Notes under the pieces: model-generated
The model's database searches: none
What the model was told of the DNA's origin: nothing
What the model saw: only the letters and a program-made list of their open reading frames with translations
From: Methylocystis rosea
GTDB lineage: Bacteria > Pseudomonadota > Alphaproteobacteria > Rhizobiales > Beijerinckiaceae
DNA: 64,000 bases
Assembly: GCF_003855495.1 (NCBI RefSeq)
Contig: NZ_CP034086.1
Span: forward strand, 868,001-932,000
Reading direction: 5' to 3'
Shown here: positions 1,580-56,110 of the stretch, one piece after another
Layout: every line of letters starts with the position of its first letter
Position numbering within the stretch: position 1 is the stretch's first letter
Program-made: the position numbers and the translations under genes

Positions 1580-1695
1580 TTAGAGCAGGTTCCGAAAAAG
1601 TTGACAGACTTTTTCGATGAGAACCTGCTCCACCATTTTGATTTCGAGCGATTCCATATCGATCACATGATTCCATGTGATCGGGAAGCGCTCTA
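1580..1695. repeat. Palindromic intergenic repeat, 'TTAGAGC' family
   Basis: The element contains two hairpins. The first pairs AGAGCAGGTTC with GAACCTGCTC around a CGAAAAAGT/ACTTTTTCG inner stem. The second is built on GATCACATG/CATGTGATC. It starts with TTAGAGC and ends in GCTCTA. Its right end runs into glyS and supplies that gene's TAG stop (minus strand, 1693-1695). The first hairpin could also act as a bidirectional terminator between the convergent genes. A related copy lies at 54091-54204. Confidence 0.8.
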
Positions 1696-3948
1696 GGCGG
1701 TCGCGCTTTCGCCTGCGATCTTGCCGAAATCGGCGACGCCCATCATCACGCGGCGCAGTTCGGCCAGAAGCCGCAACCGGTTCAACCGCAGATCGGCGTT
1801 GTCGGCGTTGACTGTCACATCGTCGAAGAAGACGTCGACCGGCTCGCGAAGTTTCGACAGCGCGCGCATGGCGCCGGCGAAATCTTCCTTCGAAAGATGT
1901 TCGGCGGTCTCTTCTCGCGCGCGGGCGATCGCCGCGGCAAGCTTGTGCTCCTGCGGCTCGATGCGCAGGTTCGGCGCATGGCGATGCGTATAGGCGTCTG
2001 GCCCGTCCTTCTTCTCTTCGGCTTTCAGGATGTTGCTGGCGCGCTTATAGCCGGCGAGCAGGTTCCTGCCGTCGTCGGTTGAGAGGAATGTGTCGAGCGC
2101 CTCGACTTTACGCGTGATCATGAGCAGCTCGTCCTGTAGCGGCGGATTCCCTTCTCCCGCTGGCGGGAGAAGGTGGTCCGGCGAAGCCGGATCGGATGAG
2201 GGCGATAACCCCTCACCCGGCTCGCTCCGCGAGCCACCCTCTCCCGCAAGGGGAGAGGGTAAGGCCCCGAGCGCCGCATCTATCAGATCGTGTCTGGCCC
2301 CCTTGTCGCGCAAGTAGACCTTCAGACGATCGATGAAAAATTCGAGGAGGTCCGCCGCGACGTCATGCCCGGACTTGTTCCGGGCATCCACGCCTTCACG
2401 TCGCGCGTGGATGGCCGGGACAAGCCCGGCCATGACGCCGTGGAGCTGCAAGCGCAGCTCATTCTCCAGCACGATCCTGATCACGCCCAGCGCCGCCCTG
2501 CGCAGCGCGTAAGGGTCCTTGCTCCCGGTCGGCTTTTCGTCGATCGCCCAGAAGCCGACGAGCGTGTCGAGCTTGTCGGCAAGCGCGACGGCGATCGACA
2601 CGGGATCGGTCGGGATGTGGTCGTTCGGCCCCTGCGGCTTGTAATGTTCTTCGATCGCCGCGGCGACGCTGGCGTCTTCACCTTGCGCGCGCGCGTAATA
2701 GCGGCCCATCAGCCCCTGCAGTTCGGGGAATTCGCCGACCATCTCGGAAACGAGGTCGGCCTTGCACAACATCGCCGCGCGCTCGGCGAGAAAAGCGTCG
2801 GCGCCGATGATCGGCGCAAGTTCTCTCGCCAGCGCCGCGATGCGCTCCACGCGTTCGCCCTGCGTCCCGAGCTTTTCGTGAAAGACGATGGCGTCGAGCT
2901 TCGGCAGTCGATCTTCAAGCTTCGTTTTGAGATCGGTCTCGTAGAAGAATTTCGCGTCCGACAGCCGCGCGGCGATGACGCGCTCATTGCCGGCGACGAC
3001 CGTTGCGCCGCCGTCCGAGGCCTCGATATTGGAGACGAGGATGAAGCGATTGGTGAGCGCGTTGTCCTCGCGCAGCACGAAACATTTCTGGTTCACGCGG
3101 ATCGTCGCGCGAATGACTTCCGGCGGGATCGACAGAAAGCTCTCGTCGAACGCGCCCATGAGCGTCACTGGCCATTCGACGAGGCCAGCGACTTCTTCGA
3201 GCAGGCCTGCGTCCTCGACAAGCTCCAGCCCTTGCGCGAAGGCGAGATCTTTCGCGTCATGCAAAATGATGTCGCGCCGGCGCGCCGCATCGATGACGAC
3301 CTTGGCGCGCTCGAGCGAGAGCGCATAATCCTCGAAGCGCTTCACGCGAATGGGCTGCGGCGCCAGGAAGCGATGGCCGTGGGTCACATTGCTAGACGCG
3401 ATTCCGTCAACCTCGAAGCGGACGATTTCGGGAGATTCAGTCTCCGGTCCGAAGGTCGCGACAATGGAATGGAGCGGCCGCACCCAGCGCAGCGAATCCC
3501 CGCGCTCGGACGCCGCGCCCCAGCGCATCGACTTCGGCCAGGGAAAGCTCTTGATGATCGCCGGCAGAATTTCAGCCAGAACGTCGATCGTCTCGGCGCC
3601 GGCGCGCTCGATGACGGCGAGATAAAACTCTGCGCCCTTCTTGTCCTTCGCGATCTTCGCCTGATCGAGCGAGGCGAGGCCGGCGCTTTTCAGAAACCCG
3701 GCGACCGCCGCCTCCGGCGCCCCAACGCGGGGGCCTTTGCGCTCTTCGCGGATGTCGGGCTGGCGCGAAGGCAGGCCGACCACTTGCAGCGCGAGACGGC
3801 GCGGCGTCGCATAAGCGGCGGCGCCCTCATAGGTCAGGCCGCGATCGACGAGCGCATTGGTGACGAGCCGCTTCAGGTCGTCAGCCGCCTGCCGCTGCAT
3901 GCGCGCCGGAATTTCTTCGGAGAAGAGTTCGAAAAGGAGATCGGACAT
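1693..3948 (-). CDS. glyS: Glycine--tRNA ligase beta subunit with two in-frame repeat insertions
   Basis: This is the beta subunit of the alpha2beta2 bacterial glycyl-tRNA synthetase, which charges tRNA-Gly in the cytoplasm. The N-terminus ([18 protein letters not shown]) and the C-terminal anticodon-binding region ([12 protein letters not shown]) are typical. At 751 residues it is longer than the roughly 690 usual for the family. The excess is explained by two palindromic repeats read through in frame, at about residues 503-530 and 563-601, both before the C-terminal helical domain. The alpha subunit gene glyQ, often close to glyS, is not adjacent here; the neighbouring upstream gene is the DUF559 cassette. 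The frame is otherwise uninterrupted, so the protein is presumably functional. Confidence 0.95.
2147..2260. repeat. Repeat pair read in frame inside glyS ('PSPLAGEG' type)
   Basis: Two hairpins face each other. One is CTTCTCCCGC/GCGGGAGAAG followed by GATGAGGG; the other is CCCCTCACCC followed by CCCTCTCCC/GGGAGAGGG. This is the same inverted design as the repeats flanking the DUF559 gene and those at 37889-38026. In glyS it encodes a Pro/Gly/Ser-rich stretch that includes PSPLAGEG and LLPPAGEG. Confidence 0.85.
2361..2438. repeat. Palindromic repeat read in frame inside glyS ('MAGLVPAIH' type)
   Basis: The outer arms pair CGTCATGCCCGG with CCGGCCATGACG, with inner GCATCCACG/CGTGGATGG arms. 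On the glyS strand it encodes a segment beginning [10 protein letters not shown] and ending NKSGHD, a peptide often seen when this alphaproteobacterial repeat is translated. It inserts about 26 residues without breaking the frame. Confidence 0.85.
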
Positions 3949-3957
3949 GTGCGCAGT

Positions 3958-4374
3958 CTATTCCCCTCCCCCCGCTTGCGGCGGGGAGGGGTTAGGGGTG
4001 GGGGGCTCTAACGTTTGGTAGAGCGCGGCGCAGATCGTGTCCACAACGCTTTCAGGATTGCGCAAAATCTCGTGATTCCAAAATCGCAGCACGCGATAGC
4101 CGCTTGTCTCAAGAAATCGCGCGCGCTTTTCATCACGCAGCCGTTCAGCGTCGAAGCCATGCTGCTCGCCGTCGATCTCAACGACGATGCGCGTGCGATG
4201 ACAGGCGAAATCCGCGAAATAGGGGCCGATCGGCGCCTGTCGGCGGAAATGAACGTTGTTGATTTCGAGCTGTCGGAGCTGTGTCCAAAGCTTACGTTCT
4301 GCCGGCGTCGCTTCGCGTCGCAATTCTCGGGCGCGGGGCGTTCGAGGGTCTGAACGATCTGTCTTATCGTTCAT
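3958..4374 (-). CDS. DUF559 (VSR-like endonuclease fold) protein inside a repeat-bounded cassette
   Basis: The protein has 138 residues from the ATG at 4374; an in-frame ATG at 4389 is possible, but it lies within the repeat. It matches DUF559: ATPAERKLW, then FRRQAPIGPYFADFACH, then VEIDGEQH and a VLRFWNHEIL strand. The family has a PD-(D/E)XK/VSR-like nuclease fold, and D/E-containing motifs that could form the active site are present (FADFAC and VEIDGEQH). The last 14 or so residues (PTPNPSPPQAGGGE) come from the left terminal repeat. The gene sits almost exactly between two 45-bp inverted repeats, an IS-like layout. DNA cleavage is inferred from the fold; no substrate is known from the sequence. 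Confidence 0.85.
   Translation of the reverse strand: MNDKTDRSDPRTPRARELRREATPAERKLWTQLRQLEINNVHFRRQAPIGPYFADFACHRTRIVVEIDGEQHGFDAERLRDEKRARFLETSGYRVLRFWNHEILRNPESVVDTICAALYQTLEPPTPNPSPPQAGGGE
3961..4005 (+). repeat. Left 45-bp inverted repeat of the DUF559 cassette
   Basis: It consists of a hairpin (CCCCTCCCC...GGGGAGGGG with a TTGC-type loop) followed by TTAGGGGTGGGGGG. By hand alignment it matches the reverse complement of 4382-4426 at 44 of 45 positions. It lies inside the end of the DUF559 reading frame and codes for its tail. Confidence 0.9.
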
Positions 4375-4381
4375 TGCGCGA

Positions 4382-4426
4382 CCCCCCACCCCTAGCCCCT
4401 CCCCGCCGCAAGCGGGGGGAGGGGAA
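4382..4426 (-). repeat. Right 45-bp inverted repeat of the DUF559 cassette
   Basis: This is the inverted partner of 3961-4005, differing at one base (CTAGGGG against TTAGGGG). It ends 8 bases before the chosen DUF559 start, where its G-rich run may serve as ribosome binding site. No target-site duplication is obvious in the bases just outside the two repeats. Confidence 0.9.
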
Positions 4427-4431
4427 TTCTC

Positions 4432-5394
4432 TCAGGCGATTTCCTTGACCGCCGACGTCGGCGCATCGAGGAGAAATTTCTCGACTTCGAGCGCCGCCAT
4501 GCAGCCGAGGCCCGCCGCGGTGACCGCCTGGCGATAGACTTCGTCGGCGACATCGCCGGCGGCGTAGACGCCCGGCATGCTGGTGCGCGTCGTTCCTGGC
4601 TCGACGGCGATGTAGCCCGACGGTTTGATCGTCAATTGGCCGCGGAACAGTTCGGATGCGGGCGAATGGCCGATGGCGACGAAGACGCCGTCCGCGGCAA
4701 GCGTGTGAATCGCGCCGGTCGCGACGTTCTTGACGCGCGCGCCGGTGACGCTCAGCGGATTTTCGTCGCCGACGATCTCATCAATCACGTGATTGAAGAG
4801 AATTGAAACATTCTCCTGCGCCAGCAGACGCTTCACCAAGACGCGCTCGCTGCGGAATTCGTCGCGGCGGTGGATGATCGTCACATGCGACGCGAGATTT
4901 GAAAGATACAGCGCTTCCTCGACGGCGCTGTTGCCGCCGCCGACGACAAGCACTTTCTTGCCGCGAAAGAAAAATCCGTCGCAGGTCGCGCAGGCGGAGA
5001 CGCCGAAGCCCTTGAACTTTTCCTCGCTCGGCAGTCCCAGCCATTTCGCCTTGGCGCCGGTGGCGATAATGAGCGAGTCGCAGGTGTATGACTTGCCCGA
5101 ATCTCCAGTGAGCCTGAAAGGCCGCTCGTCGAGATGCGCTTCGACAATATGGTCGGAGATGAGCTTCGTGCCGACATGTTCGGCCTGCAGGCGCATCTGC
5201 TCCATGAGCCAGGGCCCCTGGATCGGCTCGGCGAAGCCGGGGTAGTTCTCCACCTCGGTCGTGATCATGAGCTGACCGCCCTGCTCGAAGCCGGCGATGA
5301 GCACCGGCTCGAGCAGGGCACGGGCGGCGTAGATCGCCGCCGTATAGCCGGCCGGGCCGGAGCCAATGATGATGACGCGCGCATGATGCGGCAT
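4432..5394 (-). CDS. trxB: Thioredoxin-disulfide reductase
   Basis: This is the cytoplasmic NADPH-dependent flavoprotein that reduces thioredoxin. The 320 residues match the family. Visible motifs are the FAD-binding GSGPAG near residues 11-16, the redox pair CATC at 135-138 within [10 protein letters not shown], the NADPH-binding [10 protein letters not shown], and the late [20 protein letters not shown] segment that closes the FAD site. Its stop lies just outside the right repeat of the DUF559 cassette, so the cassette probably landed directly downstream of trxB. Confidence 0.95.
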
Positions 5395-9744: not shown

Positions 9745-10030
9745 ACATCGTCCGCCTTCCGAGCTGAGACGTTGGCGCGCGCGATGAGAGACCTGCGCTC
9801 TTCCTCTGGCGCTGATATCTTCCCCGAGCGCGGCGCCGCGGGCGGCGGCGCGCTCGATCGAGCGCTTATCCTTGCCGGTGGCGGAAGCGGTCGCTGATGC
9901 AAACGACAATTTGTCGTTTGCATTCCATCTTGCATCCGCGCCAGCCGCGCCCGCCTTCGTCTCCGGGTAGAGCTCTTCGTAAATCGCTTTCCGTCTAGCG
10001 ATCGCCGCCGCCTCTTGAAACGCCGGTGCC
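9745..10030 (-). pseudogene. ParB-like gene remnant (left, inverted copy)
   Basis: The translated stretch AIARRKAIYEELYPETKAGA, then GKDKRSIERAAARGAALGED is the region that follows the ParB nuclease-like domain in short ParB-type proteins of Rhizobiales mobile elements. The N-terminal ParB domain is missing. After GED the frame shifts, and the continuation (APEEERRSLIARANVSAR) is in another frame. The fragment has a recognisable counterpart in opposite orientation at 10905-11273. Confidence 0.6.
9898..9922. promoter_or_regulatory. Perfect palindrome inside the left ParB-like remnant
   Basis: Arms TGCAAACGACAA and TTGTCGTTTGCA surround a single central base. The same core (AAACGACAA-N-TTGTCGTTT) recurs at 11040-11062 in the second remnant, at the equivalent codon position (NDKLSF). 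This could be a binding site retained inside the coding sequence. Confidence 0.5.
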
Positions 10031-10904: not shown

Positions 10905-11273
10905 ATGCGCCAAAAGCTTTTGTGCTCGGATAACGAGCCTTGGCGGCGGCGATCGCCAGGCGCAAGGCTATATAACGAAGAGCTGCATCCGGAGACGACG
11001 CATGGTGGCGATCGCAGGTCACAAGCGGTGCATGAAAATCAAAACGACAAATTGTCGTTTTGTTCTGAAACATCGAAGGCCACAGGCAAAGATAAGCGTT
11101 CAATCGAGCGCGCCGCTGCACGTGGCGCTGCTCTTGGCGATGATCTCTCCGATATCGCCGGCACAAGCCTAGGCAAGGGCGTCGAACTCGATGCGCTTGC
11201 CAAGACGTCAGAGCAAGAGCGCAAATCCCTCATCGAACGCGCCAAGGCGGGAGAGAATGTATCAGCCCGCTAG
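10905..11273 (+). pseudogene. ParB-like gene remnant (right copy)
   Basis: It holds the same post-ParB region as the left remnant: YNEELHPETTHGGDRRSQAV, then GKDKRSIERAAARGAALGDD, and here also the downstream part DIAGTSLGKGVELDALAKTS up to a stop after GENVSAR. The catalytic or DNA-binding ParB domain is absent upstream, and the first residues have no family match. It is 5' truncated and probably not functional as a partition-type protein. The start codon is uncertain. Confidence 0.55.
11040..11062. promoter_or_regulatory. Perfect palindrome inside the right ParB-like remnant
   Basis: CAAAACGACAA and TTGTCGTTTTG flank a single A. It shares the AAACGACAA-N-TTGTCGTTT core with 9898-9922, although the surrounding coding sequence of the two remnants has diverged. 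Confidence 0.5.
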
Positions 11274-37318: not shown

Positions 37319-37906
37319 ATGCGCCAAGCGTTGGTCACGATCGCCGTCACGCGCCGCCAACTGCTCGGCGCGGTGGCGGCGCTTTCCGTCTTTTCCCCGG
37401 TCATCGCATTCGCGGCGCATGGCGCATCGCCGCTGAAAGTCGTCGAGACGACGATCGTGGATGCGCCGCCGGACAAAGTCTGGGCGGTCGTGAGCGATTT
37501 TGCTCACGCCGACTGGCTGCCGGGCGTCGTCCGCGTCGAAGCGTCGGGCGACGATGTTCCTGATCAGGCGCGGCGCAGGCTGATCATGGCCGACGGCGGC
37601 GTCATCGAGGAATTGCTGACGAAGCGCGACGCCGAACGGATGCTGCTTGGCGTGCATCGCGAAGGCGATGATGTGAAGCGCTTGCCGGCGACGAATTACA
37701 CCGCGCTGATTACGCTGCGGCCGGCCGAAGACGGCAAGACGCAACTCGAATGGAAGGCGCGCTTCTACCGCGGCTATCCCAACAACGACCCGCCGCCGGA
37801 ATTGAACGACGACGTCGCCATCGCCGCGGTGAGGACGATGCAGCGCGCCTATCTTGCGGCGTTGAAGGCGAAGGTGGAAGCGAGCGTTCCCTCTCCCCGC
37901 CAATAG
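37319..37906 (+). CDS. Exported SRPBCC-fold protein, MxaD-like (second copy)
   Basis: 195 residues, a tandem duplicate of the preceding gene, starting 10 bases after its stop. The signal region (TRRQLLGAVAALSVFSPVIA) has a TAT-like RRQ start. Matching domain pieces are VVETTIVDAPPDKVWAVVSD, FAHADWLPGVVRVE and FYRGYPNNDPPPEL. The last residues (SVPSPRQ) are encoded by the left arm of an intergenic repeat pair, so the original C-terminus has been replaced or extended. Confidence 0.7.
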   Translation: MRQALVTIAVTRRQLLGAVAALSVFSPVIAFAAHGASPLKVVETTIVDAPPDKVWAVVSDFAHADWLPGVVRVEASGDDVPDQARRRLIMADGGVIEELLTKRDAERMLLGVHREGDDVKRLPATNYTALITLRPAEDGKTQLEWKARFYRGYPNNDPPPELNDDVAIAAVRTMQRAYLAALKAKVEASVPSPRQ

Positions 37907-37930
37907 CGGGGAGAGGGCTAGGGTGAGGGG
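37889..37930 (+). repeat. Left arm of a repeat pair between the SRPBCC and YVTN genes
   Basis: A CCCTCTCCCCGC/GCGGGGAGAGGG hairpin followed by CTAGGGTGAGGGG. It has the same layout as the terminal repeats of the DUF559 cassette (hairpin, then T/CTAGGGGTGGGGG). Only 56 bases separate it from its inverted partner, with no gene between. Confidence 0.85.
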
Positions 37931-37964
37931 CTTGGTGATTTTCCGAACCTATGGCGCATGACGG

Positions 37965-38966
37965 ATGTATAGGACAAATGCCCCGGCCCCTCACCCTAAC
38001 CCTCTCCCCGTAAACGGGGAGAGGGGATGGGCGCGCGCCTTACTCGCCGGTCTCTTTGCTCTCCTGTCTTCACCCGCTATGGCCGACGAGGCCTTCGTCA
38101 CCGCGCAAGGCGCCGACGCCCTCTCGATCGTCGATCTCGTCAAAATGCAGACCGTCGCGACTCTGCCCATCGGCGGCAAGCCGGCGGGAGTCGCGGTGTC
38201 GCGCGACGGCGCGCGCGCCTTCATCACCAGCCCCGAAGGCAAGTTTCTCACCGTCATCGACGCGGCGACCCGCACCATCGAAAAGCGCATTCCGGTCGAA
38301 GGCGGGCCGCTCGGCGTCGCCGCCGGTCCGGACGGCAAACGCGTCTATGTCGCCGATCTCTATGGCCGGCGCCTCGTCGAGATTGATCTGGCGAATGGCG
38401 CGCAGCGCAGCGTCGGCGTCGGCGCAATGGCGTCGGGAGTCGCCATCACGCCGGACGGCAAGACGATCATCGTCGCCGACCGCGACGACAATGCGCTTTC
38501 CATGATCGACGCGGCGACGTTTTCACGCGTCGCGATTATATCTGTCGGCAAGCATCCCTTTGGCGTGACGATCGACGCCGCGGGCGCGCGCGCCTATTCG
38601 GCGAACGTGGAGTCGGATGACCTCAGCGTCGTCGACCTCGCTTCTCGCAAAGTCGTCGCGACGCTCAAATGCGGCAGTCGGCCTTACACGGTGGCGCTCG
38701 CCAAGGGCCGAATCTTCGTCGCCAATCAGCATGCCGACAGCGTCAGCGTCTTCGACGCCGAGACCCTGGCGCCGCTTCAAACTCTGAAGGTCGGCGAATA
38801 TCCGGAAGGGCTTGCGGTCAGCGGCGACGGCGCGCGCGTCTATGTCGCCAATTGGTTCTCGAACGAACTCTGGGCGCTCGACGCGCAGACGCTGAAAGTT
38901 CTCGGGAAAGCCGAGACCGGCGACGGCCCGCGCGCTTTCGGCGCCTTTATTCGCGACGCCGAGTGA
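37965..38966 (+). CDS. Periplasmic YVTN-family beta-propeller protein
   Basis: 333 residues. Seven or so repeats of the YVTN type are visible (PAGVAVSRDGARAFITSPEG, PLGVAAGPDGKRVYVADLYG, PFGVTIDAAGARAYSANVES, PEGLAVSGDGARVYVANWFS). The signal peptide (ARALLAGLFALLSSPAMADE) is normal from its hydrophobic core on. Its first 20 residues come from the repeat at 37987-38026, and the ATG at 37965 is the only good start in frame. Such proteins are found beside quinoprotein dehydrogenase systems; together with the SRPBCC pair this suggests a periplasmic PQQ-enzyme accessory role. Confidence 0.8.
   Translation: MYRTNAPAPHPNPLPVNGERGWARALLAGLFALLSSPAMADEAFVTAQGADALSIVDLVKMQTVATLPIGGKPAGVAVSRDGARAFITSPEGKFLTVIDAATRTIEKRIPVEGGPLGVAAGPDGKRVYVADLYGRRLVEIDLANGAQRSVGVGAMASGVAITPDGKTIIVADRDDNALSMIDAATFSRVAIISVGKHPFGVTIDAAGARAYSANVESDDLSVVDLASRKVVATLKCGSRPYTVALAKGRIFVANQHADSVSVFDAETLAPLQTLKVGEYPEGLAVSGDGARVYVANWFSNELWALDAQTLKVLGKAETGDGPRAFGAFIRDAE
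37987..38026 (-). repeat. Right arm of the repeat pair
   Basis: CCCCTCACCCTAACCCTCTC then CCCGTAAACGGGGAGAGGGG, the inverted partner of 37889-37930. It is translated as the first part of the downstream gene (HPNPLPVNGERG). Confidence 0.85.
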
Positions 38967-39002: not shown

Positions 39003-39106
39003 GTCATTCCCGACGCGCGAAGCGTGATCGGGAATCCAGAGTAAAGCCAGCGTTCTTGGATCGGCACTGGATTCCCGGTCAGGCCTTCGGCCTGCCGGGA
39101 ATGACA
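39003..39106. repeat. Inverted pair of 'GTCATTCCCG' palindromic repeats
   Basis: The left unit runs GTCATTCCCGACGCGCGAAG to ATCGGGAATCCAG. The right unit runs CTGGATTCCCGGTCAGGCC to GCCGGGAATGAC. They are head to head with about 30 bases between. The right unit overlaps the 3' end of the FAD monooxygenase gene and encodes its last residues (VIPGRPKA). Confidence 0.85.
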
Positions 39107-55990: not shown

Positions 55991-56110
55991 TTTCCTCATC
56001 CTGAGGAGGCCTCGGAGAGGCCGTCTCGAAGGACGAGGAAATCCAGTTGCGCGAGAAGCCGCGCCCTCGTCCTTCGAGACGCGCCTTTCAGGCGCTCCTC
56101 AGGATGAGGG
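55991..56110. repeat. Inverted pair of 'TCCTCAGGATGAGG' repeats inside the pot operon
   Basis: Copy one (55991-56041) runs TTTCCTCATCCTGAGGAGG to CGTCTCGAAGGACGAGGAAA. Copy two (56064-56110) runs CCCTCGTCCTTCGAGACGCG to CTCCTCAGGATGAGGG. They stand head to head between the ATPase and the first permease gene and could form strong hairpins in the mRNA. Confidence 0.88.

What the first reader, a model, noticed from the sequence alone, without database searches (positions are those of the whole stretch)
3958..4426. DUF559 gene bounded by near-perfect 45-bp inverted repeats: a possible nuclease-driven mobile cassette
The single gene lies between repeats 3961-4005 and 4382-4426 that match at 44 of 45 bases when inverted. 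The gene starts 8 bases inside the right repeat and its last 14 or so codons are the left repeat. A pair with the same design but no gene between its arms lies at 37889-38026, and a third pair lies inside glyS. This resembles autonomous versus non-autonomous (MITE-like) elements, as with RAYT transposases and REP/BIMEs in gammaproteobacteria. DUF559 has a VSR-like nuclease fold, so the protein could recognise or nick the hairpins and help them spread. I know of no description of DUF559 in this role.
Basis: partly seen in the sequence, partly recalled or inferred. Interest (0 to 1): 0.7.

Follow-up and report, generated by a model that had tools for sequence, protein, structure and literature searches.

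The report
DUF559 nuclease genes partnered with REPs
A small bacterial DNA-cutting enzyme gene is nearly always found next to one kind of short palindromic repeat, which suggests that the enzyme spreads or maintains those repeats; an unrelated small nuclease shows the same bond with a second kind of repeat.

Summary
In detail: arms 3961-4005 and 4382-4426 match at 44 of 45 bases when inverted, around one DUF559 gene between trxB and glyS in a Methylocystis-like genome. The pattern is general. All 6 DUF559 genes of this genome lie between inverted hairpin-plus-tail repeats, each with its own version. Of 157 DUF559 loci, mostly alphaproteobacterial, 93 are bracketed. A repeat core lies within 300 bases of 146 of 156 DUF559 genes and of 0 of 27 acetyltransferase genes. 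Over 60 family genomes, repeat number follows DUF559 number (rho 0.76); no RAYT transposase was found in this genome. A 'mobile cassette' is not supported here: the DUF559-glyS adjacency is old. The RAYT-like idea is supported: a resident nuclease partnered with dispersed REPs. An intended control gave a second finding: small GIY-YIG genes lie beside CGTC REPs (27 of 50) and never beside the DUF559-type core (0 of 50); CGTC REPs were reported to lack a dedicated transposase (PMC3733652). That either enzyme acts on its repeats is inferred, not shown.

The parts
3958..4389 (-). DUF559 gene (GTG start at 4389; alternative ATG at 4374)
   Evidence: ORF; PF04480 E 4.6e-38; catalytic-type residues D60, E71, D73, H77, D86 conserved at 98-99% of 165 loci
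3961..4005 (+). Left arm: hairpin 3963-3991 plus G-rich tail 3992-4005 pointing to the gene; also codes the last 14-15 residues
4382..4426 (-). Right arm: inverted copy, 44 of 45 bases, tail pointing to the gene; holds the GTG start
1693..3948 (-). glyS (glycyl-tRNA synthetase beta chain; name recalled from the finding), 10 b downstream of the DUF559 stop; adjacency conserved in 36 loci
4432..5394 (-). trxB-like gene (thioredoxin reductase; name recalled, not searched), upstream neighbour, also beside the unit in the close relatives L037-L040 and L020
37889..38026 (.). Gene-less dimer of hairpin-plus-tail units, tails inward
2149..2259 (.). Dimer of two unlike hairpin-plus-tail units inside the glyS reading frame; other repeats or none at this place in relatives
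3049..3069 (.). Site in glyS that is empty here and in L038, L037, L020, and holds a 138-b repeat dimer in place of these 21 bases in L040 (and an N-interrupted one in L039)

Best explanation
The DUF559 gene encodes the resident nuclease partner of a REP-type repeat family. Each repeat unit is a hairpin (roughly CCYTCYCC..GGRGARGG) followed, sometimes after a second hairpin, by a G-rich tail (GGGTGGGG or GGATGAGGGG). Two units in inverted order form a dimer; the gene sits inside one dimer, and gene-less dimers are scattered through the genome. Shown here: the tight, kind-specific association; the shared tails-inward geometry; repeat number following DUF559 number; co-divergence of arms and proteins; one site in glyS with and without a dimer. 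Inferred: the enzyme, a small nuclease related to EDxHD/Vsr-type homing endonucleases, recognises the hairpin-tail unit or its target and makes a nick or break whose repair copies a dimer into the site, with replacement of target bases and no target duplication. At this locus the gene itself is an old, vertically inherited resident, as is described for RAYTs.
For: 6 of 6 DUF559 genes of this genome bracketed, each by its own repeat version. 41 of 71 named loci against 0 of 1993 spans and 3 of 497 ORFs; 17 of 26 family loci; 14 of 25 class loci against 0 of 27 GNAT loci from the same 96 genomes; 12 of 21 phylum loci; 93 of 157 pooled. A core within 300 b of 146 of 156 DUF559, 0 of 50 GIY-YIG and 0 of 27 GNAT genes. 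Repeat number against DUF559 number over 60 genomes: rho 0.76, partial 0.54 given GIY-YIG and genome size. 42 of 42 neighbouring units within 600 b in G037 and G052 are tails-inward, including the two pairs that hold DUF559 genes. Mantel protein against arm distance 0.33, 0 of 999 permutations as high. Profile match to a mobile-intron nuclease, 3r3p, E 2.3e-4. No Y1 transposase found in this genome. Filled and empty glyS site.
Against: No direct evidence of binding, cutting or movement. Genomes with repeats but no DUF559 found: G051 (102 repeats), G007 (15), G039 (7), G033 (6); genomes with DUF559 but almost no repeats: G016, G017, G040. Counts are not corrected for phylogeny or, alone, for genome size (repeats against Mb rho 0.66). 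64 of 157 loci are not bracketed. Tails point away from the gene in 8 loci and both ways in 9. The window's own repeat has hardly any dispersed copies. Bracketing changes at least 16 times on the tree, so it is not needed for the gene to persist. The catalytic residues are equally conserved in unbracketed genes. No bracket in Neisseria, Synechocystis, Picosynechococcus, A. brasilense and an E. coli-labelled record.
Confidence: 0.62

Rival explanations
1. The whole unit is an insertion-sequence-like mobile cassette: the arms are terminal inverted repeats and DUF559 is its transposase.
For: Near-identical arms; six DUF559 paralogues at different places in one genome; in Sphingomonas parapaucimobilis a bracketed DUF559 lies inside a transhydrogenase operon whose counterparts in other records list no DUF559 between the subunits (listing only, sites not aligned).
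Against: At the window's locus the gene is beside glyS in 36 loci and those genes cluster in the tree. No empty site of the gene-bearing unit was seen there. The only filled/empty site found concerns a gene-less dimer and shows no target duplication.
Confidence: 0.1
2. The repeats are spread by some other agent and settle, or are kept, around DUF559 because they control its expression (terminator, mRNA hairpin, promoter) or because the gene is dispensable.
For: The start codon lies in one arm and the 3' end in the other. Repeats also enter other places, even the glyS reading frame. Some genomes have repeats without DUF559.
Against: It does not explain why DUF559 takes one repeat kind and GIY-YIG the other, why repeat number follows DUF559 number, or why arms co-diverge with the proteins. 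Acetyltransferase genes show no bracket (0 of 27). The one other agent tested, Y1 transposase, was not found in this genome and is found in 10 of 60 family genomes; of the ten with most repeats 8 have none, while G027 (6 matches) and G038 (1) have weak ones.
Confidence: 0.15
3. DUF559 is a Vsr-type mismatch-repair nuclease, as proposed for Caulobacter VsrA, and the repeats are incidental or merely its frequent substrates.
For: VsrA is a DUF559 protein needed for the SOS response of cells that lack the methylase ScmA (PMC12907096, passages). TIGR00632 vsr matches weakly (E 6.4e-5, below its cut-off). Unbracketed genes keep the catalytic residues.
Against: Repair gives no reason for a gene-by-gene match with one repeat kind or for several diverse copies per genome. 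In that paper mismatch cutting by VsrA is a proposal, not an assay (passages seen).
Confidence: 0.08

Closest known systems
RAYT (TnpA-REP) with GTAG REPs / REPINs
   Same: Short palindromic units in inverted dimers; the enzyme gene flanked by its own units; enzyme presence tracks repeat number; enzyme mostly resident and vertically inherited (PMC8266576 and PMC8049555, passages).
   Different: Enzyme is DUF559, not an HUH/Y1 transposase; no Y1 match in this genome. Tails are G-rich, not GTAG. Several diverse enzyme copies per genome are common.
CGTC REPs (Di Nocera et al. 2013, PMC3733652; abstract, passages and section 6 read)
   Same: Short palindromes in head-to-head dimers, chiefly in alphaproteobacteria; reported there as lacking a dedicated transposase.
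   Different: A different repeat kind from the DUF559 one; here tied to small GIY-YIG genes. The DUF559-type repeats carry no CGTC tag.
EDxHD homing endonucleases (I-Bth0305I; that 3r3p is this enzyme is recalled, the call names it 'Mobile intron protein')
   Same: Profile match E 2.3e-4. PMC9403480 (passage) places a DUF559 gene in the EDxHD family.
   Different: Homing endonucleases have extra DNA-binding regions and target long sites (PMC3943268, passages); this protein is a single domain. No intron or intein here.
Vsr / Caulobacter VsrA
   Same: Vsr-like nuclease by weak sequence match; VsrA is itself DUF559.
   Different: Vsr is tied to a cytosine methylase and T:G mismatches; such a link was not tested here.

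Membership tests
RAYT/REP (REPtron) | Enzyme is a Y1/HUH tyrosine transposase | tested here: not met
   The protein is PF04480; no PF01797 match in this genome
RAYT/REP (REPtron) | GTAG-tagged palindromic units | tested here: not met
   Arms end in G-rich tails with no GTAG tag
RAYT/REP (REPtron) | Enzyme gene flanked by the units that are dispersed as inverted dimers | tested here: met
   93 of 157 bracketed; dimers in G037, G052 and in this genome. For the window's own subfamily dispersed copies are few
RAYT/REP (REPtron) | Enzyme processes its REP in vitro and spreads it in vivo | not testable with these tools
   needs bench work
Insertion sequence with terminal inverted repeats | Target duplication and empty sites for the gene-bearing unit | tested here: inconclusive
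   None seen at the conserved glyS locus; queries at other loci gave listings without a clean aligned site
CGTC REP | CGTC-type tag and CCA-type tail on the units around DUF559 | tested here: not met
   CGTC core near 14 of 156 DUF559 genes, DUF559-type core near 146
EDxHD homing endonuclease | Conserved E, D, H, D catalytic residues and nuclease homology | tested here: met
   E71, D73, H77, D86 conserved at 98-99%; 3r3p E 2.3e-4. Assigning these columns to the motif is my inference
EDxHD homing endonuclease | Gene resides in an intron, intein or phage and homes into an intronless allele | tested here: not met
   Free-standing chromosomal gene between trxB and glyS
Vsr repair endonuclease | Match over the family's cut-off | tested here: not met
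   23.2 bits against 97.85

The most novel reading that the evidence does not exclude
Alphaproteobacteria carry two further REP systems beside RAYT/GTAG, each run by a small single-domain nuclease from a homing-endonuclease class: DUF559 (EDxHD) with hairpin-plus-G-tail REPs and GIY-YIG with CGTC REPs. REPs would then be a convergent solution, spread by break-and-repair homing and not by HUH transposition, and the reported orphan status of CGTC REPs would be resolved.
Probability: 0.5. Interest if true: 0.9.

Novelty: new variant of a known kind. Interest (0 to 1): 0.82.

Why it matters
REP repeats are abundant in bacteria, and the paper that classed them into two super-families found a dedicated enzyme only for the GTAG one (PMC3733652). 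The associations here name a specific, testable enzyme for each of two repeat kinds, offer a role for a widespread domain of unknown function, explain the proline- and glycine-rich tail of this protein as translated repeat, and bear on how the Caulobacter DUF559 protein VsrA is read.

Tried and rejected
Rejected: mobile cassette at this locus. Rejected for this genome: RAYT as mobiliser. No Rfam family at gathering threshold in the window. A defence role has no support beyond weak matches to the nuclease stretch of large proteins (PADLOC, NCBIfam).

Controls. GIY-YIG was meant as a null control and failed as one (9 of 23); GNAT replaced it (0 of 27). Of 3 bracketed 'other ORFs' one is a second DUF559 and one a CdiI-like neighbour of a DUF559; the third, in L056, lies next to the DUF559 unit of that locus and was not searched. 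One of 147 phylum control spans passed.

Limits. The bracket threshold of 16 was set after the first loci were seen (counts at 14-25 are), and the repeat patterns were written from DUF559 flanks. DUF559 counts were merged by me: frameshift pairs joined, weak matches in long frames dropped, so 37 positive genomes against the tool's 40. Small GIY-YIG counts are matches minus one and picked from the listing. Dropped before counting: 9 of 80 loci (short flank), 3 of 29, 4 weak class loci (L156-L159), 2 phylum loci (L181, L182), 3 of 30 GNAT, 7 of 30 and 4 of 30 GIY-YIG (one of the 7, L210, is back). The bracketed class locus L155 has arms that do not look like this repeat kind. Of 23 bracketed GIY-YIG arms, 17 match my CGTC pattern, 2 only the other pattern and 4 neither. 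This genome's own GIY-YIG gene lies between two CGTC dimers but does not pass the bracket score (9). Raw correlations cross over (CGTC against DUF559 0.47; DUF559-type repeats against GIY-YIG 0.49); only the partial ones separate. Empty-site queries on plasmid records gave listings, not clean sites; the S. meliloti one was dominated by ISRm16. The structure job had not finished at the last poll, so no fold search was made.

Full report
What is there. On the minus strand the order is a trxB-like gene (5394-4432), DUF559 (4389-3958), glyS (3948-1693). The arms, 3961-4005 and 4382-4426, match at 44 of 45 bases when inverted. Each is a hairpin followed by a G-rich tail that points to the gene. The GTG start lies 8 bases inside the right arm; an ATG at 4374 is another possible start; the last 14-15 codons are the left arm. 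The protein is DUF559 (E 4.6e-38).

Not an isolated case. This genome (4.21 Mb) has 6 DUF559 genes (7 rows, two being halves of one frameshifted gene). All 6 lie between inverted repeats of one design, each with its own version. Bracketing was scored as the best ungapped inverted match across the gene (+1 match, -3 mismatch), 16 or more counting. Family genomes: 17 of 26 further loci (3 dropped). Eighty named loci: 41 of the 71 with enough flank, against 0 of 1993 matched spans and 3 of 497 other ORFs, one of the three being another DUF559. Class draw of 96 genomes from 95 families: 14 of 25 DUF559 loci against 0 of 27 acetyltransferase (GNAT) loci (Fisher p 2.5e-6). Phylum draw: 12 of 21, with 1 of 147 control spans. 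Ten loci from plasmid records: 5, among them Deinococcus proteolyticus and Azospirillum lipoferum. Pooled, 93 of 157; the pool is mostly alphaproteobacterial, and its 157 proteins all differ.

Unbracketed genes are mostly one-sided. In the 71 loci a repeat core lies within 300 b on both sides of 34 DUF559 genes, on one side of 31 and on neither of 6, against 41 of 476 other ORFs at least 700 b away with a core on any side. Six glyS-adjacent or other rhizobial genes looked at closely carry a whole dimer just upstream (L049, L078, L094, L101, L105, L112). Over the pool, 146 of 156 DUF559 genes have a core nearby, against 0 of 27 GNAT genes.

Dispersed partners. In 60 family genomes two hairpin-plus-tail patterns occur 0 to 183 times per genome in sum; reversed-pattern controls give 0 to 2 per strand. 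Repeat number follows DUF559 number: rho 0.76; median 41 with and 1 without; at least 5 in 34 of 37 genomes with and in 4 of 23 without. Given GIY-YIG number and genome size the partial rho is 0.54 (p 2e-4); for GIY-YIG given DUF559 and size it is 0.17 (p 0.20). Exceptions: G051 (0 DUF559, 102 repeats), G007 (0, 15), G039 (0, 7), G033 (0, 6); and G016, G017 and G040 have DUF559 with 1-2 repeats. In G037 and G052, 23 of 23 and 19 of 19 neighbouring units within 600 b stand tails-inward, 55-116 b apart except for the pairs 489 and 408 b apart, which hold DUF559 genes. In 800 kb sampled evenly from this genome there are 35 cores (1 after mononucleotide shuffling); of close pairs with both tails called, 6 are tails-inward, one of them a DUF559 unit, and 1 is reversed. 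Their best matches are spread over the arms of the resident DUF559 genes: F4 12, F3 7, F2 6, F6 5, F5 3, F1 2, F1 being the window's; some matches are weak.

Gene history. DUF559 lies beside glyS in 36 loci; of the 33 with enough flank 15 are bracketed. glyS-linked genes cluster in the tree: 6 changes against 31 shuffled. The window's gene is thus an old resident. Bracketing needs 34 changes on the tree against 50 shuffled, at least 16 forced. Protein and arm distances correlate (Mantel 0.33; 0.23 for 77 loci without glyS link; 0 of 999 permutations each). Tails point to the gene in 65 bracketed loci, away in 8, both ways in 9, unclear in 11.

Movement of repeats. In glyS, L040 has a 138-b dimer where this genome has 21 bases; L039 has one at the same place interrupted by N; this genome, L038, L037 and L020 are empty; no target duplication is seen. 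The window's glyS has its own dimer at 2149-2259 and a CGTC dimer at 2362-2436.

The enzyme. D60, E71, D73, H77 and D86 are conserved at 98-99% in 165 loci, equally in bracketed and unbracketed ones. A profile of 23 relatives finds 3hrl (E 1.4e-35), then 3r3p, a mobile-intron protein (E 2.3e-4; I recall it as I-Bth0305I), then PvuRts1I (E 0.006).

A second partnership. Small GIY-YIG genes, chosen as a control, are bracketed in 9 of 23 class loci and 14 of 26 family loci, mostly by CGTC-type repeats (17 of 23 by pattern). This genome's own GIY-YIG gene lies between two CGTC dimers, although it does not pass the bracket score. Of 50 GIY-YIG loci, 27 have a CGTC core within 300 b and none has a DUF559-type core; of 156 DUF559 loci, 14 and 146; of 27 GNAT loci, 3 and 0. 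Over 96 genomes CGTC number follows small GIY-YIG number (rho 0.51; partial 0.365, p 4e-4), DUF559 number less so (rho 0.47; partial 0.218, p 0.035). Di Nocera et al. (PMC3733652; [quoted passage not shown]

Literature. Searches for DUF559 (14 papers listed, passages read in two), DUF559 with palindromic (2 listed), Vsr with palindromic repeats (13 listed, one opened), GIY-YIG with 'REP elements' and with 'repetitive extragenic palindromic' (none) and REPIN with RAYT since 2019 (10 listed, two opened) showed me no report of either partnership. The library holds open-licence papers only and most listed papers were not opened, so this is weak evidence of absence. RAYTs are described as mostly single-copy, with no evidence of mobility, vertically inherited, with presence often tracking REP abundance (PMC8266576 and PMC8049555, passages); DUF559 at glyS behaves alike except for copy number.

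Judgement. The association is strong and specific and is the part that is shown. That DUF559 acts on its repeats is the best explanation; the homing-like route is inferred from the enzyme's relatives and a single filled/empty site.

Noticed in passing
L213 1404-1979 (G000:C1:2749904-2750479): Small GIY-YIG gene of this genome lies between two CGTC REP dimers; in other genomes such genes are bracketed by CGTC-type repeats. Possible enzyme partner of CGTC REPs.
   Followed up: partly
window 2362-2436, 39003-39105, 55994-56109: CGTC-type repeat dimers in the window, the first inside the glyS reading frame.
   Followed up: partly
L056 3382-3787: A second DUF559 gene, bracketed by the same repeat kind, about 1.2 kb from the first.
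   Followed up: partly
L121 about 2300-2440 and 2910-3060: Neisseria gonorrhoeae DUF559 gene stands between direct, not inverted, copies of a hairpin-bearing unit (sequence printed there).
   Followed up: no
L155 1409-1934: DUF559 gene with 56-b inverted arms that do not look like this repeat kind.
   Followed up: no
window 9814-9924 / 11037-11147: A 111-b inverted pair, 76% complementary, 1112 b apart, the longest inverted pair listed in the window.
   Followed up: no
L130 2435-2883: Bracketed DUF559 gene inside the NAD(P) transhydrogenase operon of a Sphingomonas parapaucimobilis plasmid record.
   Followed up: partly
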